Of a stretch of DNA of 64,000 bases, positions 22,438 through 58,768 are shown piece by piece; position 1 is the stretch's first letter, and every line of letters starts with the position of its first letter. Under the pieces are notes generated by a model. That model saw only the letters and a list, made by a program, of their open reading frames with translations, did no database searches and was not told the DNA's origin. The stretch is from contig NC_018395.1 in NCBI RefSeq assembly GCF_000208865.1, positions 2,449,920 to 2,513,919 on the forward strand, given 5' to 3'. The position numbers and the translations under genes were made by a program. Origin of the DNA: Neospora caninum Liverpool (taxonomy: Eukaryota; Apicomplexa; Conoidasida; Eucoccidiorida; Sarcocystidae).

Positions 22438-22528
22438 TTCAGATTCATGAACCTACAAATGGTGGCCCGCCCAGTGGTGTCTTTTGAGAGGGTTAAATGA
22501 TCCGCTGTTATTCTACTTCGCATCCCTG

Positions 22529-28543: not shown

Positions 28544-28823
28544 GCTGCCGAAGTATGAACGGAACTGCGATGTCGCAACGAGAACGCGGTTCCATGAAGT
28601 GTCGCAAATTTTGACTGAAGAAATGGCACACGAGAGCCTTTTCGAATCTCTTGGACTTCTGAAGTCGGACTGGAAGAGTGCTTGGTGGTTTGCGACTTCG
28701 CGATGACTGTGTCTCTACACCCGGGACCCAGAAGGTTTTAGCAGGGGATCCGAAACCCCTGTTCCCCTTCTTGATGCCGCAACGGTTGGTTCGTCTCAGT
28801 GCTTTTTACTGGCAACGAAAATC

Positions 28824-34513: not shown

Positions 34514-34553
<40 letters not shown>

Positions 34554-37258: not shown

Positions 37259-37295
<37 letters not shown>

Positions 37296-38246
37296 GCCTA
37301 CAAATATGCCTAAACCCTCATATATATATATATATGACTGTGCAAGACAAGCAATATTTGTCCGCTACAGGATGTCAGCGTGAAAGTCGGAGGCAGGGGC
37401 GTATGTCCTGCATGTGAAGCGATTCCCGAAGGTTTGTCTGTGTGTTGCCGCTCACCGCCTGACTCTTTGCCCGCACCATCGTCTTGACTCCATCACGGTG
37501 ACCTTCCATGCAAAAGAGCAGTGGTTTGGCGAACATCTTTTGCAGTTTGACGGCGTTGAGTGCTCTCGTGTACTCGCGTTCCTAAAGCGACAAGGAGATC
37601 GATGGGCCAACGCAGAAGGACAAATCGGACGCCCCCGCAGAGAGCGACGTGGTAGCCGAAGGCGACAAAGTGCCAGGACGAGAAAGTGAGGCAGTGAGAG
37701 AGAACGAGAGGAAAAGAGACGGAGGGAAAGAGAAAGAGAGAAAGAAAAAGACAGAAGGAAAAAGAGAGAACGAGATGGAAGGACAGAAAGAGAGGGAAGA
37801 GCAGCTATGCATCCGGCGCGTACCGGCCCCTTCCCCATTGGGGTGGCCGAGAAGAAGAGGAGAGACCACGCGGCACACGTGGTTGTAGATGACACAAATC
37901 GACAGAGTGTGGAGGTAGCCCGCTTTCTTACGAGACGGAAGACAACGATGCCTACAGCGATCGCCTATATCTGCATGTACATAGATATATATGTGCACAT
38001 GCATCGACATCGCGCCTTCATGTGGACGCTCATATCCGGGTTTGCGGCGTCGTATCAGATGCGGCGTGAGGTCTGGGGCCCTGAGTAGTGGTGTATGCAG
38101 CGAAAAAAAGACGGAACTGTGTGTTTGCGTACTCGCTCGAAAGGGTGCATCTGCGGGTCGAAATTACGGACTACGCGCTGAAGCTGGCCAGGCTTCTGTT
38201 GGACGTAGTCGGCCGGGTTGCGGTGAATCACCTTGACTTTCACCAT
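31149..38246 (-). CDS. DCAF13: DCAF13 / Sof1-like WD40 protein, 13 exons
   Basis: DCAF13/Sof1 is a seven-blade WD40 protein of the U3 snoRNP/SSU processome in 18S rRNA processing; in animals it also serves CUL4 ligases. Exons: 38246-38133, 37581-37456, 36998-36893, 36411 to about 35972, 35762-35693, 34966-34857, 34236-34188, 33888 (or 33873)-33827, 32948-32809, 32525-32400, 32031-31837, 31578-31503 and 31235-31149. The start MVKVKVIHRNPADYV and RNFDPQMHPFER match human MKVKMLSRNPDNYV and RNYDPALHPFE. Then come TRALNAVKL and GHRDGVKTMV, CNGEVAEWNL, TCLDHHW, NAICWNP with EDQNLYTFDMR, LDVDYSPTGQEFVAASFDG, SRDVYHTRRMQ and EIKRIAR. The C-terminal HSKPGAVPFVSVKKK is the family's Sof1-type tail. About 566 residues against 445 in human. 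Most of the surplus is a charged insertion in exon 4, whose 3' end is the one junction I could not settle. Divergent from the C2CD5-like gene. Confidence 0.95.
33222..33253. repeat. (TA)n microsatellite, DCAF13 intron 8
   Basis: A TA dinucleotide tract of about 32 bases, broken once near its left end, between DCAF13 exons 8 and 9. Confidence 0.9.
34518..34551. repeat. (TA)n microsatellite, DCAF13 intron 6
   Basis: A perfect TA dinucleotide tract of about 33 bases between DCAF13 exons 6 and 7. Open frames running through it give artificial Tyr-Ile repeats and are not genes. Confidence 0.9.
37262..37335. repeat. Two (TA)n tracts, DCAF13 intron 2
   Basis: TA tracts at 37262-37292 and 37320-37335 are separated by about 27 bases, between DCAF13 exons 2 and 3. 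The pair could form alternative hairpins. Confidence 0.9.
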
Positions 38247-40065
38247 TTTGCGGAAGGCAGCCGAGCCGGAGCGAGGGCGCGGGGCGAAGCCGAGACAGGA
38301 GACAAAAGGAGACACTGAAGCGAAGAACTGAAAAGGGAGCCGCGGGAGGGCAGGGAAGGGAACGGCGAGACGAGGGAGGCGGAGGGAGACGAAACGGGCT
38401 CGAAAAGGACTGAAAGGACACCACAATTGCGGTGCCGACGGAGGTACAGAAGAGATGGCACTGCGAGAGGGGAAAGGCGAGAAACGACGAGGTGGGACAG
38501 ATCAACAGACAGTGAGAGAAGACGGCGGACGAAGATGAGAGAGAGCCACAGGAGAAAGACAAAGAGAGCGACGATGTGCTCCGTGTCGGTCTCTCGCGCT
38601 TCGGCCTGCTTCCATCCTCGTGGGCGAGTTCTCTCGGCACCTGCGTCGAACTCTGCGTGGGCGAGAATAGCGCCGGGCGGCAGACGCTCACGGGCGCGAG
38701 GCGGAGAACGCACAGAGGAGGGGGAATTGAAACTCCACTTGGCGCAGTCGCCTCTGCGCTGCTGTTCTTTGTAAATCGTCGGAAGGCATTCGATCGAATT
38801 CGCGGGCGAAACCCAAAAGTGTTGGGGAAACTGGAGAAGATGGACAGCGGCATGCAAGGCAGGGCTCCCAAGACGAACCAGAAGGGACGACGACGCTCCT
38901 CTCTTGCGCCCGAGAGTCTCTTGACTGAGAAGAGTCGAGAGAGAAGACGACCACCTGGCCAACGGAGGCGGAAAAACACAAAAAGCCGGAGAGAAGGGTG
39001 AGGAAAAGGTGACTTGCCTGTGTCAGGCGCAAAAGGAGGATCTTCTTAGCGTAAAAAATGTGAGAGGGACACTCATTGGTTGGCGTGTTGGCCGCTGGTG
39101 GCCCCACAGAAGAGAAGGCGGAGGAACTGAAGTAGAAGCACGAGAAGAAAGGGAAGACGAAAAAGAAACGAAAGTAGCGCGGTGCACGGCGCAAGAACAA
39201 GGAGACGGAAGGAAGAGCGTTATACGGTAGGAAAGAAGAGACAGAAGACGCGTTTCAGATCGCTCGTCGCGCGTTGAGGGCGCAGAGAGATCCAGTGGAA
39301 ACAGAGGCAAAGGACGCAGCCGAAGAGAAAAGAGTATAATGAGGTGATTGAAGAGAAGAAAGGCTCGAAGGCACGAAAAGGTGTCGTAGGAGCGCACGAA
39401 GATTCCTTGTCTCCGGTTTTCGGCCGAGGAATTTGCTTGTTATAAACAGTAACGCGTTCTTCGCCGACCGCAGGTTTCGCTGTGCATGCAGCCGCGTGCA
39501 TGCAGTCTCGACAGCTGCGGGAGAGACCGCAGCGGCTAGCGTAGAAGCAGGAGGGACGCTCTTGTGGACATTGCTGGCTGTCGATTTCCGCCATCATTTG
39601 TCTTTGACTCTCTCACCACCTGCTGTTCGTTTTTCTCTGCCTTATCACCGTGAAGATGATCCTGTCTCGCGGGGAGGCGACCTTGACACCCGGCGGACCT
39701 AAGGAAACCACATGAAGCTGACTGTGTGCTCGAATATACACGAAGAACCGCCCAGCGGCGGTTCGATTCAGATGCCTCCGTCGTTTTCTTCTTTTTCGGT
39801 CTTCGAAGATCACTATCTGCTTTCCTCAGCACAGCAGGGACGTATCGCCGAAGCGCCGCATACACCGAAGAGAATCCGTTCCGTGTCTTGTTCAGCATCC
39901 AATCCACCTTTCGCGGCGCCTTGCCTTGTGCACCTCTCCCGGTCTGGTTTATCTCTCCTTGTCTCTTCTGGATGTTAATTCCTGGCCATCTCCGCGCGCT
40001 CTTGCTTGTGTCTGTCTCTTCGTTTCCCATGTGTCGGCGTCTTGCTGGCCACCCGTGCTTCGAAG
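38247..40065. promoter_or_regulatory. Shared DCAF13 / C2CD5-like divergent upstream region
   Basis: About 1.8 kb separates the two start codons. The left two thirds are a purine-rich (GA) stretch with no supported exon. The right part contains two TGCATGCA palindromes and the likely 5' leader of the C2CD5-like gene. Long open frames here arise from base composition and lack any family match. Confidence 0.45.
39483..39504. promoter_or_regulatory. Two TGCATGCA palindromes
   Basis: TGCATGCA occurs at 39483-39490 and again at 39497-39504, 14 bases apart. The core is a reported over-represented promoter motif in Toxoplasma and a binding site of some apicomplexan AP2 factors. The position, about 0.56 kb before the C2CD5-like ATG, fits a promoter element. 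The binding factor is not known from sequence. Confidence 0.5.
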
Positions 40066-43000
40066 ATGCCATGCACCGTCAAGTTGCGCATCGTCGCCGC
40101 CCGCGGTCTCGCTCTCTCGTGCCTTCACCAGCCCCGCTCTGTCCAGGCTGGAAACAGCTCGACGCCGCTCCCCTCTTTGTCTCTCTCCCCTCACATTTTC
40201 GACGCAAAACGAGAGCGGGAAGCCCACGAGGAGAGGCACGATAAGGCCGGACGCAAAAAAGAGCGAGACGGACGCGCCACCCATTCGGCCTCGGGTGTCA
40301 ATACACCTGGAGCAGGTGTCTCTACACCCGGAGCAGGGAGCTGTAGCCATGGACGAAATGTGCAGTCCTCGGGTTCGGCGTACTCGCCGGCCTTGCCAGA
40401 TCTTCTCGCCGTCTCCATCGCCCTGGGGCCGCATTTCCACGAGCGGACGAAAGCCAGTAAGCAGTCGAGGACACACGGAAGAATGAGTCGAACTGCATGC
40501 GCACTGTGCGCCCTGTGGCAAGCCTAGCAGGCGTCAGTCTCGCCTCGGTGGAGAAGTGGGCGCGATGGGAAGCCTCGAACGGCCAGAATGAAGGGTCGGT
40601 CGTGCCAACGCAGAGGGAATCATAATTCTTCGCGGTCACGGGGAAGACGACGGTGGCAGCGAAGCGCTCGAGACAGGCCGTTGTCGAAACGACTGCTGCA
40701 CGGTGCCGCGGCAAAAAAGCATATCACAGGCAGCGTAGAGTGCGTCGGACGCAGGAAGCGCACGCCTACCTTTGCCTTTGTTTACCGGATCCAAGTTCTA
40801 TTGTGTTCGCAGCGCATCGTTAGGATTGGACCTATTGTGGAAATAGAACCAGTTGAACACCATGTATTGATATAACGAAGATACGCAGGGTGATCTGGGA
40901 TCCGCCTTGGCACAACAGTAAATCCAGGTAGATGCCTGCTTTCTGTACAAAACCGAGAGGCACGGGCGTCATCAACAGAATACAACCGCCTAAACTCCAT
41001 GCCGGCGTGGATGGAAACGAACCCTCTCTTTCCGTTTCGCTACCACATCTGCATCTGTCGCGTCTTGACCTGTCCAGGTGCATGAATATGCCGTGTCTCC
41101 GCTTTCTCTCCTCTCCGGTTCCGTCTCTGTCGTCCCTTCGCTCGCAGGGGCTCCCGCCTACTTGCCACCCGAGGAGGCCAGCTTGCTCCCCGCCCCCCTC
41201 CGGTGTCCGTACACCTGGAACGAGACGTTTCGGATCGAGGTGCCGGACGAGGCCGTGCTCCAGACCTGGCCATTAGAATTCGACCTCGTTAGTCTCGCTC
41301 CGCACGAAGGCTTTCCTTCGCCTGTCTCGGGCAATCCAGTCGGCCTTCCTGGCCCGAGCGCGGCTCCGGGCATGTTCGGCGCAAAAGCGTCGGTGCATGC
41401 TTCGAGGCCTGCCGGTGCCCCTCCACGCGTCGCGTGGAGCCGCGCGCGCGCCTTCTGCCGTATGGCAGGTCTGCGGCACGTGGGCTCCAAGACCGCGAGT
41501 CCTCACAGCCAAGAGAAGCCGTGGTTTGTCGGCAGCGCCGGAGACGCCAAGGCCCTCGCCCGCGGCAGCACCGGCTCAGTAGCCGCAGAGGGGTCCGCGA
41601 GCTCGTCCGCCGCCGCTGCCGGCTGTCTCCTCGGCACGTTGCTCCTCGACTTGACGCCGCTGCTGAGCGCGGGCGACGCCAGCGATGACCACGGTCGCTT
41701 TGCGGGATGGGACGCAGGCGAGGAAGAATGCGCAACTGTCGGCGAGGGCGATCGGGAAATCCGAGTCCGCCTGCCGCCCCGCGGACAAATGGAGGGGTGG
41801 TTCCCGGTGCTCGACAGCAAAAAAGGCATTGTTGGTAAGCAGCGGAGACCGGGGCGATACTCAACGGCTGCTGCAGAGCGCATGCAAGCCAAGCCCGGAG
41901 CGACGCTATCCGGCGCATACGGGAAGTGTCTTTGCGGCCGGCGCGCAGGCTGCTCGGGCCTCTCCAGCGGAGGGGCGCGGGGGCGAGGGAGGAACGGAAC
42001 GCAGAGAATACGGGGTGCGCGAGGAGGGCTGCCGACTGGCCCACATGCATGTGAAGGAAGAAGGAGGGGGACGGATGAGGTCGGCGAGACAGCGCGTGTT
42101 TGTGTGCGTTCCTGGGGGTGCGTGAGGTTTGCATGCGTGGACGCCCCCTCATGACGCGCCAAGGGGGGGGGCGGGAAACAGTCGCTGGAAAGACATCGCT
42201 CCTCCCTTGTTTCGTCTGACTCATTGTCAATTTGCGGTGTACGGGGACGTTGCAGGCGAACTGTGGATCTCAGTGCGTCTCTCCTTCGCCCGACAACTTA
42301 ACCCCTTCAGCTCGGCGTCTTCTGGGTTTGTCCGTTTCTTCGCTCTCCCTGGCCCTCCCCAGGAATATCTCCACTCCGGTACGTTTCCTCTCGGCGCCGC
42401 TAGGCGTCGCCGCCCGCCCCGATTGAAACACCCCGCTACGGTACAAGCGCCCTTCGGGAAACCCGTCAGCTGCCGGCCGGGGACTGGCCTCTCGTTTGTC
42501 GGGCTTCCGCCGTTATCGGCATCCGCAGTTTTCGATTGGTGACGTTTGCCCAGATCGCAGGACGGGCGAGTTTGCTCGCACGTGACGCCAGAACAACTGC
42601 CTGCTTCTGTCCTAGGGACGCGTACCGCTCTTTGCGCTGCATACCAAAATAAACCGACGTTTGGTAGACACAACGGCGGCACCGGCGTTCTCTGATTTAG
42701 ACAGGGCGCGGTCACAGGAGGTCTTGAGCTAGAGCAGCCTCTGCTCGTTGTGTCGGGAGGAAAGCACGAATGTCTGGCTTCGGGCGATTCTGTGCGACTT
42801 GTAGATCTGTCCCGCAGTCCCGGTCGTTTCTGCGTCGCCATGCAATCAACTTCTCTCCCTCTGCATCTGCCGCTTTTTTCTTCGCCACCTCACGCGTACC
42901 TCCTTCAGAGCCGCGCCTTTCCCTTTCTTGTTGGTCTTGCGCTACCGTCAGTACCAATCGTCGTTTCCTGATTCCCGTCTCCGTTTGGTTCCCTGTGGGG

Positions 43001-45718
43001 CCATCGGCTCTGGAGTGTCGTTGCCGCCTCGCTGTCGACATGTCTCTCGCTCTATGGCCCTGCTTCTCCGCCCTGTTCTCTCCGTTTCTATCGCTCGATC
43101 GCGCAGTTGGTCGCCGTCTCTCTCTTTCGCCCTTGTCTTCTTTCGTGATGCCCGTGAACTCGCGCATGTGTCCCCCTCGGCCAGGCTGTTCACCTGGCGC
43201 TCTTGGCCGCTTGTCGGCTTGGCCCTCATCCTTGAGCCTGGTTTTTCTCGCAACGCCGCGTGTGTTCTGGCGATGCCGCCAACTGCGCCGCGCCCTCCGC
43301 TCGCTGTCTCGCCTTCGCCTCTCAGGTGTCAGCCTCCTAGGATTAGTTGAAGAGCTGCTTCTCGTCTCTCCGCCGTCGGAGGAGGACGCGGACTTTGCCT
43401 ACTGGCGCGAGATGATGCGCAGATCTGCGAAACGCCCGGGGAACCTTCGCCGCCTCATGCTGCACCGAGCGCTGATGCTCACGCGGCGGACGATTGCGAC
43501 AAAGGTACGATTTGGACAGCCGCCAGTTCCGATCCAGGCTCGGGGTGAAGATGGATCGCTTGCGTGCCGTGAGTCCCTAATCGGATCTTGCGTCTCTCGC
43601 GTTTGCGCACGTGCGGATGTGCGTCTGTGGTCCTCCCGTCCAGTCGTCTCTCCGCCTGTCGTCTGCTCTCTCGCCGCCGTTCCCTTTCGCCCTCTCCGTC
43701 GGGATCGTCCCTCTTTCGCGTGTTCCGGCTCTTCCTCTCGGGCTCCTGCCGCCCTGTCCTCGTCACCCACAACAGTCTGTCCCCTCCACGATTCGGCGTG
43801 GCCGACGCCACCGCGCCCTCGTCGTTCAGGCGCCGAGAATCCAATGCCCTCGGCCGCTGTGCGCGCTGGCTGCCGCTTCGCGCACGCGTCACGTGTTTGC
43901 GGTGCTCTCTTTGCTTTGCTCTGTCCTCCTTTTTGTGTCTGCGTTGGCTCGAACCGACCGCGGCGCAGGTGGAACAGCGTGGCGGGAATGCAGTGCTGGG
44001 CTACCGCGCCGTGCTGGAAATCGACGGAGACTTTGACGGCGGCGACTCTGCGGACGCGCGCTCGACGTGGTGCGTCCGCGCATTCGGAACAGTCGTCCGC
44101 CTGTCTGTCCCGGTGGCCCAGCGCGCGTCGGGTGCACCGCTGGCGTCGCTCAGGCCTGGCAACGCTCTCTGGCCCCGACCGCCGGACCGAGACGCGGGCA
44201 AAGCCCGTCCGACGCGTCTCCACCGCGAGACGCCCGGACGCAGTTTGGAGCTTAAAACCCCAAAGACAGAGCTAAGGGATCCGATTCGCGTCGCAGAAAA
44301 CGTCGACCTCCTGGTGGGGGCTCCTGGGCACGCGCCGCAGCCTGTGCGGTATGCACGCGCAGCACGTCACGCCGCGTTTCCAGCGTTTCTCTTTGGGGGA
44401 TCCAAAGCTGGCGACGGGGCCGAAGAGAACGAAAGGCAGCCCGGATTGCTTGAGTCGTTCACGTCAGCGTCTCGTTCGGCTTCCTACCCGAGTCGCGAGC
44501 GAGGCTCGGAATCGTCGAAGGAAGAGTGCCGAATGGCCGCTGACCTTCCAGGATCCCGGAGCGCTTTGGAGGGAGACACGCAAAGCCAACGGAGCCAGGG
44601 CGGTCCAGGGGAGGACGACAGGCTCAGCGAAGGTGGCCGCGGATGGGCGCGACGCACACGGGAGCTGAGCGACGAGGACAAGCGCCAGGGGAGTGAGAGT
44701 CGAGAACGGGGCTCCACAGACGACTTCGAAAACGGGCAGAGACGCATGTGCGGGCGCGAGGTCGAAGTCGACCTGTGGGCGGGGAGGCGCAGAGAAAGGA
44801 AAAGCGCGCAGGAGCCACGCGCACTAACGCGCGTAAGGGGCGGTGCAGGCATGCGCGGTCGCAGCGCTGGAGACCTTGACCGGCACTGCAGAAGAAGCTA
44901 CGTCGACCTGGATGCTGAGCAAGGCTGGGAACGGGGCGAAGGCGCGGGACCCATCGACGAGGGCAATCCCCCCCTGCACGGACGAAGAAGTCCGAGCTGG
45001 AGCGAAGACGAACGCGGAGAGCGACCCACGAGGCTCGGGCCGGGCGGAGGACACCCCGAGCGGAATCGAACTGCCATGAGGGAAGACGGAGGCGCCCCCG
45101 AAGACTTCTCGACCAGGCGGCAAACCCGAGGAAGCGCAGAACGTGAGGATGCTGGCCACTGAACGGAAAGCACTGTCCCCTTTGAGAAGGTGCCAGCAGA
45201 CGGGGGGCGGGGGGGGGNNNNNNNNNNNNNNNNNNNNNNNNNNNNNNNNNNNNNNNNNNNNNNNNNNNNNNNNNNNNNNNNNNNNNNNNNNNNNNNNNNN
45301 NNNNNNNNNNNNNNNNNTGGAGCACGGCCTCGTCCGGCACCTCGATCCGAAACGTCTCGTTACAGGTGTACGGACACCGGAGGGGGGCGGGGAGCAAGCT
45401 GGCCTCCTCGGGTGGCAAGTAGGTGGGAGCCCCTGCGAGTGAAGGGACGACAGAGACGGAACCGGAGATGAGAGAAACCGGAGACACGGTGGGGGGGGGG
45501 GGGGGCATGCCGCATGCAGCATGCAACCTTCCGAGTAGACAGGTGGTGTCAAGCGGGGCGCTATCAGTGTAAACGCCGGGTGGTTTCTATCTACGTCTCT
45601 TCCTGTCTACATCAACATCTCTTTCTTTCGATCGACCACTCTATATATGTATACACACATGTATATACGCACATATGCAGGCGCATGTGGATGTGCACGT
45701 ACAGCCGTCACACTTCAA

Positions 45719-45750
<32 letters not shown>

Positions 45751-48700
45751 CGGATTGCCTTGTGACTGTGTTTCTTTGTCTTCTCAGGTCTCTCTCTGAA
45801 TCCGGCGTCTGTTCCTCTGGTGCCCGCCTTCCCGCCTCAGTCGCTCTGGGAGCAGACTCAAGCTCCGCGCTCGTGCTCGCCTTTCCTTGGTCCTCGACCG
45901 ACAACAACGCCGTCGCTTCGGCCCCTCCCGTCTCCGCTGCCAGCACACGCGACAGTGCCCAGACAGTGTCCGGCGTCCCGTCTGCCGCCGTCTCCCTTCT
46001 ATCCTTCTTTTCTTCCGGCGTCGTATCCCGCCCAGCCGTTCCCTCGAACACCCTCCCCGTCTGCCGTCGAGGTTGCCGCAGCCGCCTGCAAACCCGTTGA
46101 GCTCTTCACCATTGGCCGCCTGCCTCTTAATTACACTCCGGTCTTCGGTAAGACAAGAACCTGGGACTTCTTGCCGCGCCACCTTCCGGCTCCAACCCCC
46201 GTTTGTGTGTCTTGGCCTCTGGGTGGGGTCAGTTGTCACGTCGCCCCTCTCTCTGGGGCGTCTTGTCGCAACCCGGTCCTCGAAATCGCTAGCTGCGCTG
46301 CTCTTTCTCTCTACTCCCTGAGTCAAGTGGGTATCCCTCCGTTCTCGAGGTCCTCTGCTCTGCATGTCCTATCCGCTCTTCGCTGTCGTCTCCCTTGTCT
46401 CTCGGCTCCTTTTGGTCTCGCGTCTGCGCTCCGGTCTGCTCCGGGGTCCGCGCCGTCACGCGTCTCTCCCAGCTCTAGACACCCTGTCGCGTTTCCACTC
46501 TTCCTCTCCTGCCCCTATCCTCTTCTCGGCTTCTAGCGTGGCCGCCGGTGCATGCGGCTGTCTCCGTCCTCCAGGCAGTGTCGTCAGCGCCCACAGCGTC
46601 AAAGTCTTGCCTGCTGGCCAGTCGGGCTCTGTGACGGCCTCTGAGGAGCAACGGACCGCCTGGTGGCTCCAACTCAGGGACGAGCTTCGCGCGCATGCAC
46701 ACGCCCTCCAGTGCGACGCCATCATCGGCTACGACGAGGCGGTGAGTCCCCCGGTGTCGCCGCCAGAGCGGGCGCAGCGGAGGAAAACAGGGGGGGCGAC
46801 CTGGCAGGGAAAAGTGCAGAGGCTGCTCGCACCTCGAGACGGAGAAGCCGTGACCCACAACGAAGCGCCAAGGAGGCAAAGAAAAAGCGGGCATGCACGA
46901 GGGGCGAGGAACGAGGAGCGACATCCTGCCGGGCGTGTCTCCGCGAACGGCCTTCGTTGTCTCGCACGACGATCGGGTTGTGTCCCTCGGAAATCGTGTA
47001 TGTTTCCCGTCTATGTTTCCAGGCTCTGCTCGCTCATGTGATGAGACCCCGCCTGGTCGGTCTGTGCTTGGTTTTTGGTTTCTCAATAGGCCTGCCGGTG
47101 CGGCTCGGTGCTTCTGCTCGTCTGCTTCGGCACAGCAGTGCGTCTCCTTCCTCTCCCTCGGCCTCTCGCGGCCGCGCCTGTCTCTGCGTCGGGAACCCTG
47201 GCGCCGTGCCGACCTCGCCTGCTCGCCAACGGCTGTGGAGGCCACGCCGCCGCGTCTCTCGCTCCCGCACTCGCCTATTCTGCGCACGCCCTACGTGCTC
47301 CAGGCGGTCGTCCCACGCCAGCGCTCGGCCCTCATCACTGCGCTTCTGCTCTGGCCTCCGCGTCTCGGCCAACGTCCTTGATCTTGCCAGTCTCGCCCAG
47401 CTTAGGGCCTGCCGGGTTGGCGGAGTCGCCTGACGCGCCTCCACGCCCTCCCGCTTTCAGGGTCACTGAGCCTTCGCATGGGGCGCCTCCGCCTCAGCCC
47501 GCGGAGGCCTTTGCACCTTCGCCTGCATATTTCCCTGTGGCGACAGACGCGCCCAGCCTGCCGCCTCGCTTTCCCGGTGACTCCCGCCCTGCTCGGGCCT
47601 CGGCCGCTGTGCCTGCCTCAGAAGCTGGGCCGGCACGACTCGGCGGGGTCGTGCGCCAGCTCCCGTGTTTGGCCGAGGCAGCGGCTGTCTATGGACGGGA
47701 GCAGGGAGTGAGCGGCCGGACGCGAGAGGCTTGGGACGCGACGAGAGGCAGACACGCGCGAGACGCGTGTGACAGCGACGACGAGAAGGCCATTCCCGTA
47801 TCGTCCTTGTCGCCGGAACCGCGCATCGATCTCCTTCCGGTTTCTCTGCGTGCAGCGACAAATCGCCTGCCGGACCCCGATGGCCGAGACGGTTTCGAGG
47901 ACGGTCCCCTCTTTGAGGGCGAAGGCCGGAAGCGAAGCCGCGACAGGGAGAAGAAGCGAGAGCGACGGCGAGGGAGAGAGGGACACTCCGGGACTGGACG
48001 GGACGGGTTTTTGCTTGAAGCGCGAGGAGACAAACCCCGAGACAGGAGCGGCGAGCGACGTTCGCGAGAGGCCGAAAGCGGGATGTCCCGCACGCCTGCG
48101 TCGTGCCGACCCCGCTCGTCGCCAGACGATCCATCTGGTTCGAGACTTGTGAGCGCCCGCACACGGAAAAGGGTTCGAGATGAGAGTGCAGCAGGCCGAC
48201 GACGCCACGCAGCCCATCGGCAACGCGTACCGGCCCTGCTGCCGTGCACGATGGTCCATTGCCCCGCCTCGATATTTGTGCCGGCTGCTGCGCTGGCCTC
48301 AGCTACCGGCGCGTCCGAATCAGGCAAAGGCTACTCCCCGCCATCAGCGTCTCCGTTCGGTGTGGCCGATCCTGTGGGAGGCCTCTGCTCTCCCGCGGCG
48401 AGTGGTGGCTTCCCTGGCGAGGCAGGGACTGCAAAAGAGGCTGCCTTCGCTCCCGCCGCTGGCCACCAACGGAAGGCAGCCGTTATCTCGGCGCTTTCCG
48501 CGTTCCATCCTTCGTCGTCGGTGTCCCGCGCCCAGCCGTCGCTCCGCGCCGGGACGGTTTTCCCGCCTCAAGAGACACCCCGCCGAGGCGTACATACACC
48601 TGAGGCGTCGGTGCCCCGGAGTCGGCTCTGCCGGATGTGCGGAGCCGGCGTGGTTCCCGAAATCCTTCTCTCGACCGTCGAAGTCCCTGATGGCCTTCCA

Positions 48701-51700
48701 GTGCTCTGTCGCTCGGCGCCCCTCCGAGTCCAGGTCTGTCGCACCTTTCCAGCGGAGGATAGCGACTCGAGTTCTCGCTCCTCCTCTTCCTCCTCCTCGT
48801 CATCGTCCTCTTCTTCGCCTTCGCCCGCTCGCCGACTGGCTGAAGACCGCACGCTGGCGCGAGCGGGAAGCGCGAAACGGACAGGCAAAACGGCGCCGGC
48901 GGACAGGGAAGGCATCGAGCCGGTGAAGCAGAAGCAGATGCGCGCGGGAGGCGACGCCGAGGGCGGGGGCCTGCCGCCGGAGCGCCAAGATCATAAATTG
49001 TCTCACGAGCGGGAGAAACGGAAAGCCCGCTTGCGGCGGCAGAACACCGACTCGGGGCAGCGAACGCGGGGAGCTGGCAGCGCCGCACCCAAAGCGAAGA
49101 AACGCACGTTTTTCCGCCGCCTTTTGAGTTTCGCGGCTTTTAAAGGGTCGGATTCCGACTCGAGTCGTGCATCGAAATGCACCCGGAACTGGTCGCCTCC
49201 AGCGAAAGACCGCCACAGGCCAGCGGCCTCATCGAGACAGGAGACAGCCAAAGGCCATCGAAGGAAGGAGAACGGTCGCGTGCGGACGGAGACGCGCCGA
49301 CGCCGAGGCGAGTCGTCCTCCTCTTCTTCGTCCTTGTCGTCTCCCGAGCGCACCAAGAAGCACCGCGGAGGCAGCAAGGCCGGAGCCCGGCCCCTCCGTC
49401 CCCGCGGCTTCGAGAGGAAACTGCAGACGGCCGACACAGCGCTCGCGTGTTTGGTGTCCGAGGCGCTGCCGTTTCTGCTTGTGGACCTGCACCAGATGCT
49501 CGTTTTGAAGGTGCGCATGCACGGCTTCAACGCTGTCTTTGGGCTGCGTCTGACCTACGCGGTTGGCGGGAGGGCCCTGATTGCCGAGGCGATTGGGACA
49601 GGCCTCGTGCTTCTGCCGCTGCCGCCTCCCGGCCGCCTGGTGATTCGCAAATCGCCCTTCTGCGGGAGTCTGCGAAAGCGCCTGAACGCGTTGAAGGATG
49701 CGCGCGAGCGAGAGGAAGCGCAGGCCGATCGGGAGTCGAGACGCCGGAGACGAGCAGCGAAGCGAGAGAGACAGCAGCGAAGGCGAGAAAGGAGGAGACT
49801 GCTGGAGCTGGAGGGGGCAGAGCGCGGCGCCGAGGAGGACGATGCCGAGGCGGGGCGGCAGAGGCGCAACAGCGAGAGACGCCAAGAAGCGGAGGAAGGA
49901 AAGGACGGAGAGCGACGACGCGCTGGCCGCGAAGGTTTCGTTCCACGCTCAGTATCGCCCGTGTCGTCTTTGTACCTAGACGATGCAGAGGGGGAATCAG
50001 CCACAGAGGGCGAGAAGGAAAAGGCGGAGCGTTCGCCAGAATGCGAGCCCTCAAAGGCTGCCACAGAGATGGCAGGAAACGGAGACGGGGAACGCAGTGA
50101 GCGACGCGATCTGCCGTCGCCGACGCACAGCCGCCGACTGCGTTTTTCCTCCTCCGTCGGGCAGACGGGCGACACCGAGGACCCCGACAAGAAGCCGGGG
50201 ATGGTGGCGAATCGGGATGAGTATGCGCGGGAGAAGAAGAGGCGCAAGTTCCGGTTCTTCTTTTCGAAGAGGACAGAGCGCGAGTCGTCTTCAGAATGCG
50301 AAGACGCGGACGAGAGCGTCAGGGCGGGACGAAACTTCGGCTGGCACTCGTTGTCAGCTCGGCGTGCGTGGCGCCGAGAGAAAGACGAGGACTCGGACTC
50401 GTCGTCTGAGTCGTCCTCGTCCTCGTCTCTCTCTTCATCTGAGAAAAGCTACTCGTCATCCAGCTCCTCGGTCTCTTCCTTCCGCCGTTTCTTTCGGCAC
50501 CGCCACCCTCACAGCCAGTCCCGCGGGTTGTTCCGTCCGACGCGGCGACACCCGTTCCTGTCGCTAGCTCACGGGCGCCTTCATCACCGTTCCTCGTCTT
50601 CTCTGTCCTCATCGGCGTCTTCCTACTCGTCCTCCTCCGCCTCTTCCTCGTCCACTTCCTCGTCTCTCTCCACCCTCTCCTCGCGCTCTTCTTCGTCCTC
50701 AGACTCCCTCTCTTCGTCTCTCTCGACCTCTTCGCTGTCGTCGTCCTCCTCTTCCCGACGCCGCTCCGCTCCTTCGCCCTTCCTGTCTTTCGCGCGATGG
50801 ACTCGCGCTGGAAGCGGCAGAGACGCAAAAGCATCGCCTCAACACTTTCACCTCTCCGACGCGCCCTACTCCGCCCCGCCGTCTCCTGCAGTCTCGCCCT
50901 CCCGCCCCACAGCCGCCAGGCCGCGCGACGGGCCAGGACATGCGGACCTCGTTCCAGCCGCCCCCACTTTGGGGACCATCCCTGGCTCTCCGCCGCTGTC
51001 TCCTGGGCAAGAAGGAGAGGGAGCCCTCGGCGACCGCGCGGAGGAAAGCGATGGAGGGCTGGAGTCCGCAGGCGGGCCTCGGCCTATATTCGGGTCGTTC
51101 TCCTTCGCGGGCCGCAGCGGCTCCAGTTGTGCGGAGTCTGCAAGGGCGCCGGGAGGGCCTCACAACTCCTCCATAGACGCCAAAGAGGCTGGGAAAGAAG
51201 GCGAGCGGGGCGAAGACGAAAGAGACCCGGAACGGGGACGAGACGAGACGAGGAAGGAGTCAGGGCGGGACACCGTTAGGGACGACCAGTTGCCAGATCG
51301 CGCAGCGGAATGGGAAAGACGGAGACGGCGAGAACGACGGATGACACGGCAAGCGAGAAGAGCAGACAAGAGGCTGAAGGCAAAGAGGAAAGACGAAGCG
51401 ATTGCACACGACATAGAAGACTTGAGTATTCGGAGCTGCGCTCAGAACGATCTCTGGTCGGAAATCGCCTATTACCACGGTGACGCAATAGGGTACGTGC
51501 CCCAACCCCAGACTGCATGTGGAAGTGCTTGGAATCAAGTGACAGAAAGACGTGCCCCGTGAAAGGTTGTTCACATTGCCATATATATCTATACATGTAT
51601 ACGTAGCTGTATCTACCTATACATAGGTATATATATGCACGAATATGTATATTTGGTCTCAAACGGGGGCTGCGTGCGACATAGGTATGAACGAGAATAA

Positions 51701-54700
51701 GTCAGTTGCGCGTTGTCCGAAGGCATATCGGCCTTAAAGATGCATATACATACATAGACAATTGCATACGTACACATGCATATAGATGTATATATTCCCT
51801 TATTCATCTGCACTTGGCTCCGTCTGCTTAATGTGGAAAGGCACATGCAAGAAATGGAATCGGTTATAGGGCTGACGGCCTCGGGCATAAAGCGTTCCAG
51901 ATGCTGGAGCCAGGAGAAGAAAGAGTCCTCAGGAATAAAGAGGCTTATGGGCAAAAGGCGGTGACTGCAAACGCCACCCAAGGACACTCTCCAGCGGGTG
52001 TCGCACCCGTTGATCTTCCCTTCTGTCCTTTGTATTTTTGTGCTGCTGCTGTGCTTGCCTATCGTCTTTTCCTCTTCAGCCTTGCTCACGCGAACCGCCG
52101 TTTCCGGGGACCGCGTCCCCGCGCCCAGATGCGCGAGAGCGCTGGAGACCGCGCCTCAGGGGCCAACGCGCCCCAGCCTGGTCCCTCGCTGTATCCCTTC
52201 CTTCTGCTCCCCCTCAGCAGTGCTCCGGCTTCACGCGGCGTCACCGCGTCGCCGCGTCTTTCTGGCGATCTCTGCCGGCCGAAGGAAGAGGCACGAGTCC
52301 CTTGCTTTTCTGCCTCGGCGTCGCCGCTTGTCGCCCCTTCTGGGGCTGCCTCTTTCGAGCGGCCTTGCCTCCTTCCTTCTTCCCGAGTCGATGTCCCAGC
52401 CACCGCGCCGTGGGCGACAGCCGGGGTGGGCGGCTCTGTCTCGGGCGGGCGCGGCGGTGGAGCCGAGAGCAGCGAGGCTGTCAGTGAGCGCGGCGTCTTT
52501 GCGCTTCTGAGAGACAGTGAGGAGCGGGACAGGCAGAGAGACGAGAACGTCTCGACAGGGTCGCATCTCCACTCAGCTGTCTCCGTTGATGCCCCAAGTG
52601 GCCTGGCCGCCACCGCCGGAGGCCATGACCCTACCGGAGACAACGGCAAACGCGAGGACGTCGATGTCTCTTCCAGCTTCGATCGCCAAGCCGGGAGGCC
52701 TGGTGGACTTCTCCAGGAGCGTCGAGCTTCATTCGGTGAGACCAGGAGACCGATCGGCTTCGACTCCGTTGTGTGCTGTTTTTCGGCCCTTCCGAGCCTT
52801 GCCCTTGCTGCCGTCTCTCGACTTTCGTTGTGCACATCTCGCCTTTTGTGATTGGGAACGGTCGCGTTCCCTGCCCGTCAGATGGAGGAGACCGGGGACA
52901 CCCCGTGTCGTCTCGCGGCGCGTTAGCCCCTTCTGGGAAGGGCTTTCCCGCGCCTGCCTTCTCTCTGTCACCGTTCTATAGGGTGGGGGGGGGGGGGGGG
53001 TGTCCCTCACTCTCAGTTCAGTTCACTCAGTGTTCGTCCTCTGCAGCCATTTCTGGTCCTCACCTTTGGGGATTCCGTGCTTCGTGTGCCTGTCACATCT
53101 TGGTCTCTCCCTCCCTCCTTTTGCTTTGGATGCCGACGTCAAACCAGGCGGCAGCCGACAGGCACTCCTGTCTCTCGTTGACAAGACGCCGACGTACCCA
53201 ACGCTGACCTCTGCAGCCCTGGCGGCTCTCGGTCCCTGGGGGGCTGGGCGATGCGCGCGGCGACACAAGAATCAGAGGATTTTTGTGTTCAGCGTGGACG
53301 ACGAAGTGGACGAGGTGCGCCTGCGCAGTCTCCATCGACAACGCCATCTGGAGGCGACAGGCTGTAGCGTCGGAACTCTCGCGCTCCTTCCTGGGTACGC
53401 CTACCGCAGCCTGAGGCTTGGAAGGGATCCCAGCGGCCAGCCCTTCCTGGGGGACTCTGTGGGTCTGTCGTTTGGGCCCCGCGCTCCGCGCCGGGGCGCG
53501 GAGACAGCTAGGGACGCGCCGGCCGAGGCCTGGGCTGACGAAGGCGTCAGCGCGGAACAAGTAACAGCGGAGAGATCGGGAGGGAGTGAGAGAGGTCCTC
53601 ACAGTGGCGCTCAGCAGCAGCGGAGAAACGACGAAAAGAATCGGACACGCAGGATGAGTAGGGCAGTTCTAGGTCCACGCATGCAGGCACCAGTTTCACA
53701 TGCCCTTGCGCCGCTTGTTTCCATACGGCGAAAAGTTGTCCTCTCCTCCAAAATCCTTCGGTCCTCCGATGCCCTCAGCAAGGAGCTGCAAAAGGTACGA
53801 GAAGCTGACCAGAAGTCAGTTCACGTATTTGCTCAAAAATACGTGTAGGTGCACAGGTAGGGCCGCCTGCCGGCCTGTTTGTAGCCCGACATAAACATCT
53901 ATGCGGACACACATTTGCACACACTTATGTTCAGATTTACACACTACTCTAGACATATGTAGATACACTCCTGGAGTCATACACAGATAGTTGCCTAGCA
54001 ATCATATACACGCACAGGGAGGGACTCCATGAGGAGTAAGTGGAAATGCGGCGGCAGACCTACCTGGCGTAGCCAGTCTCAAGCTGTGGATTGTGTCGTT
54101 TTCCGTGCCCACTCTTTTTCCCATGAAAGAATCAACGACCCTTTGGGTCGCTTTTGCATTCTTGTCGTTCCGTGGATCTGTTTTTTCAGTGTTCAAGATG
54201 TGGATTGGAAAGCGATGTCTATGCATGCACGCGATGGCTGTAAAACAGGCACATGTCCCCCCTTCCCGTTCGCGTGTCTCCGCAGGCCTGGGACTCGGCG
54301 CTCAGTCAGCTCCTCTTCGAGCCGCTGTTGCGGTGCAGTCAGGAGACCTGCGAGATCGCTCTTACGGGGTTGACCCAGTCTCTGTCATTCGCCAAGGACA
54401 ACTCCTTGTACCTCTCGCTGTCGGGGCAAATTCTTCCCCTGCTGCCTCTGCCGGTCTCGCCCTCGCGCAGTGTAGAGGAAAGGCCTTCAGGCCCCGTGTT
54501 GCCCTCTGTCTCGCCTCTTCCGGCCTCGCTCACTGATCTCTCTTCGCACCGGCCCGAGCGAGAGGCACCCCTCAAGAACTCTGTGAATCGTGGGTCGTCA
54601 TCGGGAGCGGTTTGGACCGCCGGTGGGTCCCAGTCGTTTTCCGCGCTTCCAACGGTCCCGCCCACTTCCTTGACGGCTTTGGACACTCAGTCGCAGTGGT

Positions 54701-56942
54701 TTGACCTCTCGTTGGCTTCTCTCACGAAAGAGCCGTCCGCGTCCGCTGCCGCTCACGCAGAGCGGCCACCCAACTCCCTGGCAGGAGCTTCGTTTGCAAC
54801 CCTAGCGATGTATTCTTCACCGCCTCATCCTTCATCGCTTCTTGCCACAGAGAGGAGGGAACCGTCAACCGGGCGGACCCCGGCGCATGCAGGCAGTCCC
54901 TCACGGTGTGTGTCACCTCCGTCTCGCGGTCGTTCCGACGCACCTGGCGAAGGTCACGCACTCCAGAGCCTGCACGAGGGGACCCAGGAGAGGTTTCCGC
55001 AGATCCTCGGATGCCGCGAGAGAGATTCTAGACTTTCGCCCTCGAACGAGATGCCCGAGATGCCCCGGTGCGTCCTGCGACAGGCGGAGACACACACCAT
55101 GGCGTTCTATCCGAAAGGGCCAGAAGAGCATTCACCCGGAGGAAATCGATCAGGTGTCTCTCGCCCCCCTTTCAGTGCTTCGGCGGGAAACGGAGGCGCG
55201 CTGCAGGCCTCTTCGCGGCACAGCGCAGCGAGTGACCGTCGACAGCCTTCTCTCCAAGCTTCGGCTTCTCGAGCAGAATCACGCGCCAAGGCGGGCATGC
55301 TCCCAGGTGACGTCTCGTCGCCTTCTCTCGAGTTGCATGCGCGAGGGCCTGCGCCACCCGAATCAAAGACCCACAAGCGAGGCATTCACCAGCTGGTGGC
55401 GCACCTGTCTCCCTTCTCTCTGCATCATCCGAGATCTCGGCAGCCGCAGCCACAGGGCCCTATGGACGACGCGAGGAAGGGAGAGGCGAGTCTGGGGCGA
55501 TCCGCAGCCCCGAGGGACTGTGGGGCATCTCGTGCGGGCGGAGACTCGAGTGGGCTCCCGTGCCTGTCTCCGCCGTCTCTGGGGGAAGGCGAAGCGAGCC
55601 AGGAACGTTTTTCTGCCCGGGTGCCTTGGTCCCAAAAACTACAGCAGGTTTCGCATCTTGCGCCTTCCGAGAAGATGGGGCCTGCCTCGCAAACGCGGGA
55701 TATTCGGCACGGAGTGACACGCGATGGCGTGTATCGCAGAGAAGAACGCCGGAACAGCTCTTCGGAGGACGCGGCCTCCGGGCGGAGCCCAAACGCCTCC
55801 AGGCACAACGTCGAGTCCCGAACCTACCAAGAAGGGGCCTCCAGTGATTCGATGCCTAGGCGAATCGAGATGGGGGTTGCGCCTGAAACCCTTGACATAA
55901 GCAGCGAGGGTGACGGTGTGGGCGCGCGTAGCAGAGACTTCCCAGGCTCGGAAGGCAGCCGTTCGTTGAACCGTGTTGCCAGGCCTGTGGCATCTCCATC
56001 CGGTCTCGGACGCGAGGCGCCCCCCGGCGGGGCGCGCCAGCGGCACCCCAATCCCCTCCTGCCTTCCCACGCCGTCCTGCGCAGTTTCCTGGGTCGGCTG
56101 TCATCTCAACAAGAGCAGGCGAAACGCCTTCTCGAGCATCCGCTCCTCGCACCAGAAACTATGTTCGAAGCGCACGTGTGTGGCGTCCTCCCGGCTGCCT
56201 TCCTCGGGAAAGAGAAAAGGCAATCGGAGTCGGGTGCCTGGGGAGTCGAGGGAAGAGAGAAACGGCCAGATGCGGCGTGGACCGCCTGGGAAGAGGACAG
56301 GCGATTGGGCAAGACGACGTTGCATACGCAGGATGAAACGCCCTCGGATGATGACGTCCTGGTAAGTACAGAGAAGGGAGAGACACAGACGATTAGCAAA
56401 AACGTCCGCCAACATTGAGGATCGGCGAAGCGACGCGGAACAGACTGTGCGAGCGGCGGACTCGCTTCCCGTATCTTCCTCAAACGCGTCAACATCCTTG
56501 TGAAATCAAAGGCTGGCATCCTGTCACATCAGCATCGCGAGTGTACGCAAATTCCGAGGTCCAACGGAGGTCCCGACATCGATAGGAAGCGTTTTGGGAG
56601 CATTTCTGCTGGTTGGTTGCGGCCACATTCAAATATGGAAATGCGTGTTACCGCCCCCCGCAGTACAGCAAGTATCGCTGTCTCCGCTCATCCGACCATG
56701 AGCGTGATTCGTCTGTCCTGCGCAGGTCACCTCTCTTCCAGCGCTGCCAGGATGCCGCGTCTTGCGGTGAGATGCTGTCGATGCGCCAGAGGAGGGGAGA
56801 CGTGGCTTCTCAGCGGAACCGCACAGAAACCAGGCTGTCTGTTTTGCCAGAGTAAACCACGGGAACACACGCGTATGTGTGTGCGTGCCGCTGTGCTCAT
56901 GCATATATACGTCTACGCCTCTCTCTCTCCATCCAGTCGTAT

Positions 56943-56984
<42 letters not shown>

Positions 56985-58768
56985 CATGCGATTTTGTTCT
57001 TATACGTATTGATTCAAATGCTTTTTTCCCCGGCGTGCCTCGGTGTAGGGGAGAAGTGAGCATTCCCAGGAATGTGTGTATATGTGTTAAGACAGCTGGG
57101 AACGTCTCGGCAAGGCACTTTGTGGGAGTATCGTTTGGCGTATCTTTTCGTGGCGCATTCATGTTCTGCAGACACCTCGGATTGGTGTCAGTCCACCTCG
57201 TGCAGGACGCAAGCGCCTATCACAGTCGTCAGGTAAGCGAGTTCTGTCTAGCTCCACGTGATCTCCAGTCTGTGCGTAATGCCTTGATGATGGACCTCGT
57301 TATGAGACTTTCTTGTTTCTGATCCCCTGTCATTTTCGCTATCTCATTAGTTTCAGACTGCCTCGAAACAGAAGTCCGTCCTTTCTTGATGTCGGCGCGC
57401 ATTCGCAGGGCACACGAAATCTTTCTGATCGGTTTTTCTGACGCCCACGGGTAGAGCTCATCTGTGTTTGTTTTCCCAACGTGGTAGCCACCAGCCGTTT
57501 CCACTCGCCCTCGAAACGCTCTCGTCTTTTGACCGTCTTTACACTTCAGTAAACTGCATATTAGAGCTTCACGCAGCGGAGCGTGTATTCGCGCAGCCAC
57601 TGCTGTGCACTGATCTATCTAATCCGTGAGTATCAGCAGGTTAACTCCGTGCTGCACACCTTCCTAACTACCTTCTTATGTTTGCGTCCATCACGTGCAT
57701 CTGCGTATATGCCCATACACGTGTATGTAAGACGTGGACGTGTAATTGATAGGCCACTCTGTGGGCTGCCCTGTGGACACCGACAGAGCCCGCCGTCGGA
57801 TATTTGTTTGAATGTATTCGTGAACAACTTGGAATCAAGCATGGGCAGATGAATCATCGTCAAGGCGGTAGTCTCCTGTCTCTGTTTACTGCTGTTTTAG
57901 GAGCTCACTGCGGCTCTCCATTTTGCTGCGCTTCGCGCTGCCAAGGCACGGTGCAGGGCACTGGGAGGGAATGTCCTCTTCGCCTCACTCTTCCAGTGGA
58001 ACATGATCGAGGTAGGTCCCTCGTCTCTATGGGCCCCGAGACGGAGGCATTAGCCAGGCACCCTCCTCCCGCCCATTCCTCTGTATATATTCATATATTT
58101 AGACATGTGTGAACGCATAGATAGCCAACGAGAGCGAGACACAGCCAGATCCGCAGGCACGAGACGAGAATGCTGGATTATGCAGCCCACGGGAACAGGG
58201 AAACGACTGTCACCCGTTGAACTACCAGGGAGCCAAGCATTGAAATGAGCCACGCCAAACCGAAAGGTGGGTTGGCAGGACCGGGGCTGATTTTGCGCGG
58301 AGGCAGAGCGGCCGTCGCCTAGGAGCTAGCGACGGTGGCAGCTTTGGAAATGCGCTGCCAACCCGTTGCTTTCTAGAGGGCTGCACAAAAGTAGGATGGG
58401 CATCGACGAATCGTACACGGAAGGGACGCTGCAACATGGCACTCTTTCATCCTTCGATGAATAACGCAACGACGGCCCAACCTCGACCTTTCGTCCGTTT
58501 TCCCGAAACGCCGCTCGCATCGCGGGGCTGTGACTAGCCAAAGCAAGCCGTGTGGATCATGCCTGGACCGAGAACAGACAGTTTCGCAGCGCAAAAAAGA
58601 CTCGAGAAAAGTGAGGGCATCTAAATTCAGTTATGTTGCTTCACGTGTTTTCATGTCTAAATGCTTCAGGAAGAGCGGCTTCAATCCTTCGCCGTCCTCA
58701 CATTCGCTGGAGATGCTACGTTCGCGTTCTTCCACCGGTGCGGCACGTGTGAAGAGGAGCCGGAATGA
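40066..58768 (+). CDS. Giant C2CD5 (CDP138)-like protein, at least 15 exons, interrupted by an assembly gap
   Basis: Human C2CD5 is a C2-domain phosphoprotein in membrane insertion of GLUT4 vesicles. Exons: 40066-40456, 41148-41834, 42256-42378, 43326-43504, 43969 to 44832 or beyond, [gap], 45788-46147, 46575-46741, 47090-51492, 52080-52735, 53148-53794, 54286-56361, 56726-56766, 57172-57232, 57901-58011 and 58670-58768. Apart from the gap junction all phases agree. Landmarks in human order: MPCTVKLRIVAARGL; MEGWFPVLDSKKGIVGELW; GLVEELLLVSPPSEE; RGGNAVLGY; VVSAHSVKVL; TAWWLQLRDEL with CDAIIGY; MCGAGVVPEILLSTV; HGFNAVFGLRL with LLPLPPPGRLVI; HLGLVSVHLVQDAS; ALGGNVLFASL; and FAGDATFAFFHR. Length exceeds 3,600 residues (human about 1,000), swollen by Ser/Arg/Glu-rich insertions, chiefly in the 4.4-kb exon. 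Calcium-binding aspartates of the C2 loops seem absent (LVSLAPHE where human has VLDHD), so calcium-independent membrane binding is inferred. The exon 5/6 junction is lost in or near the gap. Confidence 0.9.
45218..45317. other. Assembly gap (100 N)
   Basis: Exactly 100 N, the conventional placeholder for a gap of unknown size. It is entered through a poly-G run (about 45204-45217). It falls between C2CD5-like exons 5 and 6, so missing coding sequence is possible. Confidence 0.99.
45318..45489 (-). repeat. Inverted, diverged copy of the C2CD5-like C2 exon
   Basis: The reverse complement of this 172-base block matches 41091-41262 with no indel and five substitutions that I count (about 97% identity). 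The block spans the intron end, its CGCAG acceptor and the first 115 bases of exon 2. The reading frame stays open, with one Trp-to-Cys change (CPYTCNETF for CPYTWNETF). It begins directly at the gap edge and ends at a poly-G run. It may be a real inverted duplication whose remainder lies in the gap, or a misplaced contig end from a paralogue or another haplotype. Confidence 0.85.
45490..45524. repeat. Poly-G run followed by three GCATGC units
   Basis: A G run of about 14 bases is followed by GCATGC at 45505-45510, 45512-45517 and 45519-45524, spaced seven bases apart. GCATGC is the core of the palindromic promoter motif also seen at 39483. Here it flanks the inverted C2-exon copy. Confidence 0.7.
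45722..45750. repeat. (TA)n microsatellite, C2CD5-like intron 5
   Basis: A perfect TA tract of about 29 bases just upstream of the exon 6 acceptor. The surrounding 45630-45720 is rich in alternating purine/pyrimidine words. Confidence 0.9.
48769..50757 (+). repeat. Serine-codon low-complexity blocks inside the giant exon
   Basis: Three blocks of TCC/TCG/TCT repeats (about 48769-48830, 50381-50480 and 50591-50757) encode poly-serine with scattered Leu, Thr and Arg. They separate charged segments rich in Arg, Glu and Asp. They lie in frame in the C2CD5-like exon 47090-51492 and explain several long shadow frames on other strands. Such disordered insertions are typical of coccidian proteins. 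Confidence 0.85.
56946..56982. repeat. (TA)n microsatellite, C2CD5-like intron 12
   Basis: A perfect TA tract of about 37 bases, the longest in the window, between the exons 56726-56766 and 57172-57232. Confidence 0.9.

What the first reader, a model, noticed from the sequence alone, without database searches (positions are those of the whole stretch)
40066..58768. A giant C2CD5/CDP138 homologue in an apicomplexan
Seen: at least 15 exons whose joined phases recover the whole C2CD5 order, from MPCTVKLRIVAARG to FAGDATFAFFHR. It includes four spaced motifs of the type (G/C)xNAVxGY: RGGNAVLGY, LQCDAIIGY, HGFNAVFGL and LGGNVLFASL. Known: human C2CD5 is a C2 protein of about 1,000 residues in regulated vesicle-membrane insertion. 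Inferred: a protein above 3,600 residues with disordered insertions between the repeats could be a trafficking factor in a parasite that depends on regulated secretion. I know of no functional description in coccidia.
Basis: partly seen in the sequence, partly recalled or inferred. Interest (0 to 1): 0.8.

Follow-up and report, generated by a model that had tools for sequence, protein, structure and literature searches.

The report
Giant C2CD5 gene in Neospora
A cattle and dog parasite carries one very large, largely unannotated version of a vesicle-trafficking protein known from animals, in which the recognisable parts make up about a quarter of the protein and the rest is parasite-specific filler.

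Summary
On the + strand at 40066-58768, fifteen exons join through fourteen GT-AG introns with matching phases into one 3,724-residue frame. The organism is Neospora caninum: the public 857-residue N. caninum protein P0001 equals exons 1-5; that model runs through the exon-5 donor to an in-frame stop just before an assembly gap. A partial Toxoplasma protein (TGPRC2_233430B) spans the end of exon 8 to exon 15. Exons 6-8 join inside a nearly full-length C2CD5-specific YbjQ_2 domain. Only the exon 5/6 junction, over the gap, lacks direct support.

C2CD5 membership is supported outside the C2 domain: Pfam PF23025, E 1e-41, in the order of a relative, with no other PF23025 locus found in this genome. 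The C2 domain is only suggestive: E 0.0075, below cut-off, after hand-removal of inserts. About 77% of the protein is insert. From exon 8 on, Neospora-Toxoplasma identity is 80-82% in domains, 42-60% in inserts. Function is inferred from the human protein, whose own role is disputed.

The parts
40066..40456 (+). exon 1: start codon, first C2 strand, an 80-residue insert, next C2 strands
   Evidence: identical in P0001
41148..41834 (+). exon 2: rest of the C2-like segment (PYTWNETFRIEV) with an insert of about 93 residues
42256..42378 (+). exon 3: last C2 strand and start of YbjQ-a
43326..43504 (+). exon 4: YbjQ-a, middle
43969..45142 (+). exon 5: YbjQ-a end with motif GGNAVLGY, then a long insert; public model P0001 reads on to a stop at 45162
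45143..45787 (+). intron 5, holding the N gap 45218-45317 and the inverted copy 45318-45489; the only junction without outside support
45788..46147 (+). exon 6: insert, then start of YbjQ-b (ELFTIGRLPLNYTPVFG)
   Evidence: its C-terminal part lies in the P0003 match
46575..46741 (+). exon 7: YbjQ-b with motif LQCDAIIGY
   Evidence: PF23025 44.3 bits
47090..51492 (+). exon 8: end of YbjQ-b, Cys pairs (C-x4-C 48245, C-x2-C 48629), YbjQ-c with motif HGFNAVFGL, large Ser/Arg-rich inserts
   Evidence: PF23025 43.7 bits
52080..52735 (+). exon 9: insert
   Evidence: exact 5' site uncertain, T. gondii has extra residues at this junction
53148..53794 (+). exon 10: FVFSVDDEVDE signature and start of the putative fifth (YbjQ_3-like) module
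54286..56361 (+). exon 11: rest of the putative fifth module, then a 620-residue insert
56726..56766 (+). exon 12: start of the last YbjQ-like module
57172..57232 (+). exon 13: last YbjQ-like module
57901..58011 (+). exon 14: last YbjQ-like module with motif LGGNVLFASL
58670..58768 (+). exon 15: FAGDATFAFFHR, C-x2-C tail and stop

Best explanation
A 15-exon gene of Neospora caninum, the only PF23025 locus found in its genome, encodes the coccidian orthologue of C2CD5/CDP138. Roughly 870 residues of conserved segments (a divergent C2-like segment and at least four YbjQ-like modules, probably five) are spread through a 3,724-residue protein by parasite-specific inserts. Shown here: the gene model, the C2CD5-type YbjQ modules and their order, and stronger conservation of domains than of inserts towards Toxoplasma. 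Inferred: it is a cytosolic, peripheral-membrane trafficking scaffold with no clear membrane helix. The tandem YbjQ modules would form the rigid core, the C2-like segment would dock on lipid or partner without calcium (the loop-3 Asp residues seem lost), and the Ser/Arg-rich inserts would be flexible, phosphorylatable linkers. I put identity at about 0.93, one continuous transcript at about 0.88, and the trafficking-scaffold mechanism at about 0.4.
For: Gene model with 14 of 14 phases matching. P0001 supports junctions 1-4 and P0002 junctions 8-14; PF23025 spans junctions 6 and 7 (residues 954-1046, profile 6-101 of 103). PF23025 E 1e-41. Collinear blocks with P0003, a 1,222-residue predicted protein carrying PF23025, PF23028 and PF23128. 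Tail against P0003: hhalign probability 94%, E 1.5e-7. Domain identity to Toxoplasma 80-82% against 42-60% in inserts. tblastn controls empty. Highest 19-residue hydropathy mean 1.93, inside YbjQ-b.
Against: No transcript data. Junction 5 lies over an assembly gap. YbjQ-a alone is below the Pfam cut-off (24.7 against 29.1 bits; 20.2 bits in P0001). C2 is found in only two of three hand trims and below cut-off (E 0.0075 and 0.096; none), and the best trim also hits an unrelated family at E 0.017. The fifth module has no Pfam hit and hhalign finds only 35 columns at 11%. Two protein-database searches with the full-length query found nothing. No functional data for any apicomplexan.
Confidence: 0.72

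Rival explanations
1. Two genes: exons 1-5 (as publicly annotated, 857 residues) and exons 6-15, transcribed separately, together covering what is one protein elsewhere.
For: The public N. caninum model ends at 45162, inside what I call intron 5. An N gap lies there, and no database protein joins the halves.
Against: The stop at 45162 lies 20 bases past a good donor (GTGAGG) and 56 bases before the gap. The phase of exon 6 fits that donor. P0003 carries the homologues of both halves, in order, in one predicted protein. I identified no start codon or promoter for a second gene, but did not test for one with a eukaryotic tool.
Confidence: 0.09
2. A C2CD5 orthologue, but much smaller than 3,724 residues, because parts of the inserts are unspliced introns in my model.
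For: Most of the protein is low-conservation insert, and the region is 60-66% GC, where open frames run long.
Against: Exon 8 is open for 1,467 codons and exon 11 for 692, about 10^-16 and 10^-8 by composition. The T. gondii protein keeps inserts at the same places, though it too is a prediction.
Confidence: 0.08
3. A tandem YbjQ protein that is not a C2CD5: the N-terminal segment is no C2 domain and the resemblance there is chance.
For: No Pfam C2 match in the unspliced exons, P0001 or the 939-residue concatenate; no relevant PDB match by sequence; the locus is not among 13 C2 matches in the genome.
Against: With inserts cut out, C2 aligns over profile positions 2-103 of 104 (E 0.0075), and none of 9 scrambled controls matches C2. 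The part just after C2 matches P0003 (GWFPVLDSKKGIVGELWISV against GWYPIYDTLEGIRGEVYVTV).
Confidence: 0.06

Closest known systems
Human C2CD5 / CDP138 / KIAA0528
   Same: YbjQ_2 modules of the Pfam family named for C2CD5; a C2-like N-terminus (sub-threshold); same motif order as I recall for the human protein (recalled, not aligned by any search).
   Different: About 1,000 residues in human (reader, recall) against 3,724; loop-3 Asp residues apparently lost; large inserts. Human role from papers: Akt2 substrate in GLUT4 insertion, disputed, and a CDK5-FIBP complex (passages of PMC5636979); norepinephrine secretion (abstract and introduction of PMC13090686); dynein force adaptation with CDK5 (passages of PMC6335402).
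Toxoplasma gondii TGPRC2_233430B (P0002), partial hypothetical protein
   Same: Aligns to residues 2260-3724, same exon content, 51.6% identity.
   Different: Starts inside exon 8, so it lacks C2 and YbjQ-a to -c; Pfam precomputed for it lists PF23128, which my own scan did not return.
Neospora caninum 857-residue conserved hypothetical protein (P0001)
   Same: Identical to exons 1-5.
   Different: Truncated at the in-frame stop before the gap; has no curated domain above cut-off.
Toxoplasma ferlins and TgDOC2
   Same: C2-domain proteins of the same group of parasites, in organelle exocytosis (section 3.4 of PMC7999867).
   Different: Double- or multi-C2 proteins without YbjQ modules (from that section and recall). 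That paper has 0 occurrences of C2CD5 or CDP138.

Membership tests
C2CD5 (CDP138) family | Tandem C2CD5-type YbjQ domains (PF23025) | tested here: met
   Concatenated conserved parts E 1e-41, 141.8 bits, three stretches; exon 7 and exon 8 each above cut-off alone; YbjQ-a alone below cut-off (24.7 of 29.1 bits).
C2CD5 (CDP138) family | N-terminal C2 domain | tested here: inconclusive
   PF00168 E 0.0075 and 0.096 in two hand-trimmed versions, cut-off not reached; no match in a third trim; 0 of 9 scrambled controls. No fold test possible.
C2CD5 (CDP138) family | Fifth YbjQ-like domain (PF23028) | tested here: inconclusive
   No Pfam match; hhalign against P0003 finds 35 columns around the VDDEVDE signature, probability 11%; the segment is in the expected place and 80-82% identical to T. 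gondii.
C2CD5 (CDP138) family | C-terminal YbjQ-like domain (PF23128) | tested here: met
   hhalign to the PF23128 part of P0003: probability 94%, E 1.5e-7, 85 columns; precomputed PF23128 on P0002. Direct Pfam scans of the tail gave no PF23128 match.
C2CD5 (CDP138) family | Order of modules along the protein | tested here: met
   Five BLAST blocks against P0003 all in order.
C2CD5 (CDP138) family | Calcium-binding Asp residues of the C2 loops | tested here: inconclusive
   By eye LVSLAPHEG stands where P0003 has VDYDTYSSADLIG; MAFFT instead set VDYD on LEFD, so the register is open.
C2CD5 (CDP138) family | Vesicle trafficking or membrane insertion activity | not testable with these tools
   No functional data held.
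C2CD5 (CDP138) family | Complex with CDK5 and FIBP | tested here: inconclusive
   FIBP family PF05427 found neither in this genome nor in any control, so the search says nothing.

The most novel reading that the evidence does not exclude
Coccidia keep an ancient C2CD5 as a calcium-independent membrane scaffold whose C2-like segment is so stretched by inserts that domain searches miss it. It would serve a secretory or membrane-delivery route beside the calcium-driven ferlin/DOC2 system. As a side reading: if the inverted copy in intron 5 is real, the pre-mRNA could pair 172 bases of it with the exon 2 acceptor and regulate splicing of the membrane-binding segment.
Probability: 0.12. Interest if true: 0.65.

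Novelty: new member of a known kind. Interest (0 to 1): 0.4.

Why it matters
It replaces an 857-residue hypothetical protein by a 3,724-residue model with a named family, and shows that the truncation sits at an assembly gap. A standard exon-by-exon C2 search of this genome returns 13 places and not this one, so lists of parasite C2 proteins built that way would miss it. If the protein works in membrane delivery, it would be a further candidate beside ferlins and DOC2 in parasites that live by secretion, and an outgroup for asking what the little-understood YbjQ modules of human C2CD5 do.

Tried and rejected
Full-length protein searches: 0 matches among 2,215 scored candidates (serine-rich words may have swamped it) and 0 among 1,879 with a conserved region as query. 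They cover proteins of about 2,050-6,500 residues only. The 939-residue concatenate gave 3 matches among 7,992 scored. No second N. caninum fragment covering exons 6-15 appeared, but lengths of about 1,640-2,050 residues were never searched.

PDB by sequence: 0 matches for the concatenate at E 1; for the C2 part one irrelevant membrane protein at 0.44; for P0003 one irrelevant oxidase at 0.54. NCBIfam: 0 families for 4 proteins. FIBP search: no control rang, so no conclusion. The first pattern search of the genome returned 0, with a degenerate pattern I wrote myself; it means nothing, since the sequence is there. A bacterial promoter/terminator scan around the gap is not suited to this organism; nothing rests on it.

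Literature: C2CD5 in 73 papers, 30 listed, none on a protist by title; TGME49_233430 in 0; '233430' with Toxoplasma in 8, none about this gene by title; YbjQ with C2 domain in 0; C2CD5 with Toxoplasma in 0. Searches were too broad to help. The library holds open-licence papers only.

Considered and dropped: a chance chain of open frames; a PF23025 paralogue elsewhere in the genome (none found).
Full report
What is there. The window lies in a 57.5-Mb genome of 14 contigs. The public protein P0001, named by its source as N. caninum Liverpool, is 100% identical to my model over residues 1-852, so the organism is Neospora caninum. On the + strand I read 15 exons from ATG 40066 to the stop at 58766-58768. 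All 14 introns are GT-AG, all phases match, and the product is 3,724 residues without an internal stop. I chose sites by hand, guided partly by memory of human C2CD5, so support from outside my own reading matters.

Support for the junctions. P0001 contains junctions 1 to 4 exactly and then reads on from the exon 5 donor to a stop at 45162. P0002, a partial T. gondii protein (source name TGPRC2_233430B), aligns over residues 2260-3724 at 51.6% and so covers junctions 8 to 14; at junction 8 it has a few extra residues, so that exact site is open. Junctions 6 and 7 fall inside one Pfam PF23025 match covering profile positions 6-101 of 103. That is 13 of 14 junctions; junction 5 lies over the N gap at 45218-45317. 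tblastn with P0001, P0002 and P0003 at E 0.01 hits 13 of 15 exons, plus one non-exon row, the inverted copy; exons 6 and 12 are not hit; 3 reversed and 20 shuffled queries hit nothing. Exons 8 and 11 are open for 1,467 and 692 codons, about 10^-16 and 10^-8 by composition, while their other frames hold 8 to 23 stops.

What it is. With the inserts cut out, PF23025, the YbjQ-like domain of C2CD5, matches at E 1e-41. Uncut exons 7 and 8 each pass its cut-off alone (44.3 and 43.7 bits against 29.1). The first module, YbjQ-a, does not (24.7 bits trimmed; 20.2 bits in P0001). P0003, a 1,222-residue predicted protein from a 5,097-base JGI contig, carries PF23025 in five stretches, PF23028 and PF23128 and matches ours in five blocks in the same order. 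The last module matches the PF23128 part of P0003 with hhalign probability 94%, though direct Pfam scans did not return PF23128. The putative fifth module is weak: no Pfam match and a 35-column hhalign match at 11% around VDDEVDE. No PF23025 place outside this window was found in the genome (2 places, both here).

The C2 segment. Pfam finds no C2 in the uncut exons, in P0001 or in the concatenate. Of three hand trims, one gave nothing, one E 0.0075 over profile positions 2-103 of 104, and one E 0.096; the cut-off was not reached, and the best trim also hit an unrelated family at E 0.017. Nine scrambled controls gave no C2. The genome has 13 exon-level C2 matches, 10 over cut-off, none at this locus. 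I read the segment as a divergent C2 domain interrupted by two inserts. By eye, the loop-3 Asp residues seen in P0003 (VDYDTYSSADLIG) are missing, but the alignment register is uncertain.

Size and conservation. By hand-set boundaries 872 of 3,724 residues are conserved segments and 2,852 insert. Between Neospora and Toxoplasma, identity is 41 of 51, 80 of 98 and 85 of 105 in the three domain stretches (80, 82 and 81%), against 277 of 462, 37 of 83 and 249 of 587 in the three inserts (60, 45 and 42%). This could be measured only from exon 8 on. The highest 19-residue hydropathy mean is 1.93, within YbjQ-b; I see no clear membrane helix (a crude test).

How it probably works. Human C2CD5 is described as an Akt2 substrate in GLUT4 vesicle insertion, with a contradicting report, and as a partner of CDK5 and FIBP (passages of PMC5636979); as a CDK5 cofactor needed for dynein force adaptation (passages of PMC6335402); as needed for norepinephrine secretion (abstract and introduction of PMC13090686); and in MC4R internalisation (passages of PMC12989912). 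The common thread is membrane traffic. I infer a cytosolic scaffold with a tandem-YbjQ core and a C2-like membrane or partner contact that no longer needs calcium. No step of that mechanism was tested.

The gap. A 172-nt inverted copy of 41091-41262 (end of intron 1 and start of exon 2; 5 mismatches) lies at 45318-45489, flush with the gap, with a run of G at its other edge. It occurs in two places in the genome, both here. This may be an assembly artefact; I cannot tell.

Verdict. The finding is real and the gene belongs with C2CD5 on its YbjQ modules and their order. It is a new, very large member of a known family, absent as a complete protein from the searches I made. The functional claim remains an inference.

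Noticed in passing
window 45318-45489 and 41091-41262: Inverted repeat of 172 nt, 97% identical, one arm flush with the 100-N gap and next to a run of G, the other over the exon 2 acceptor; the only inverted pair of 60 nt or more in the window and found in only these two places in the genome. Assembly artefact or a true local inverted duplication.
   Followed up: partly
window 45143-45162: The public N. caninum model P0001 reads through the exon 5 donor and ends at the stop at 45162, just before the gap; the held protein database showed no fragment for exons 6-15 in the length ranges searched.
   Followed up: yes
window 34395-38501, minus strand: Two ORFs match DCAF13/Sof1 by sequence (8.2e-7 for 38055-38501, 1.6e-4 for 34395-35051). 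Its start near 38243 is head-to-head with the C2CD5 gene, about 1.8 kb apart.
   Followed up: partly
window 28034-28714, minus strand: Adenylate kinase 6 / coilin-interacting nuclear ATPase homologue (AAA_18 8.6e-32; 3iij E 1.9e-51).
   Followed up: yes
window 1388-4731, minus strand: Pieces of an MCM-binding protein homologue (PF09739: 27.5 bits at 3274-4731, over cut-off; 23.6 bits at 1388-2206, just under).
   Followed up: partly
window 16640-19723 and 22451-24862, plus strand: Open frames of 1,028 and 804 residues without a Pfam match at E 0.01.
   Followed up: no
window 58703-58765 (exon 15): A C-x2-C pair in the C-terminal tail, CGTC here and CDAC in T. gondii.
   Followed up: no
window 45722-45760 and 56945-56985: TA microsatellites inside introns 5 and 12.
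   Followed up: no
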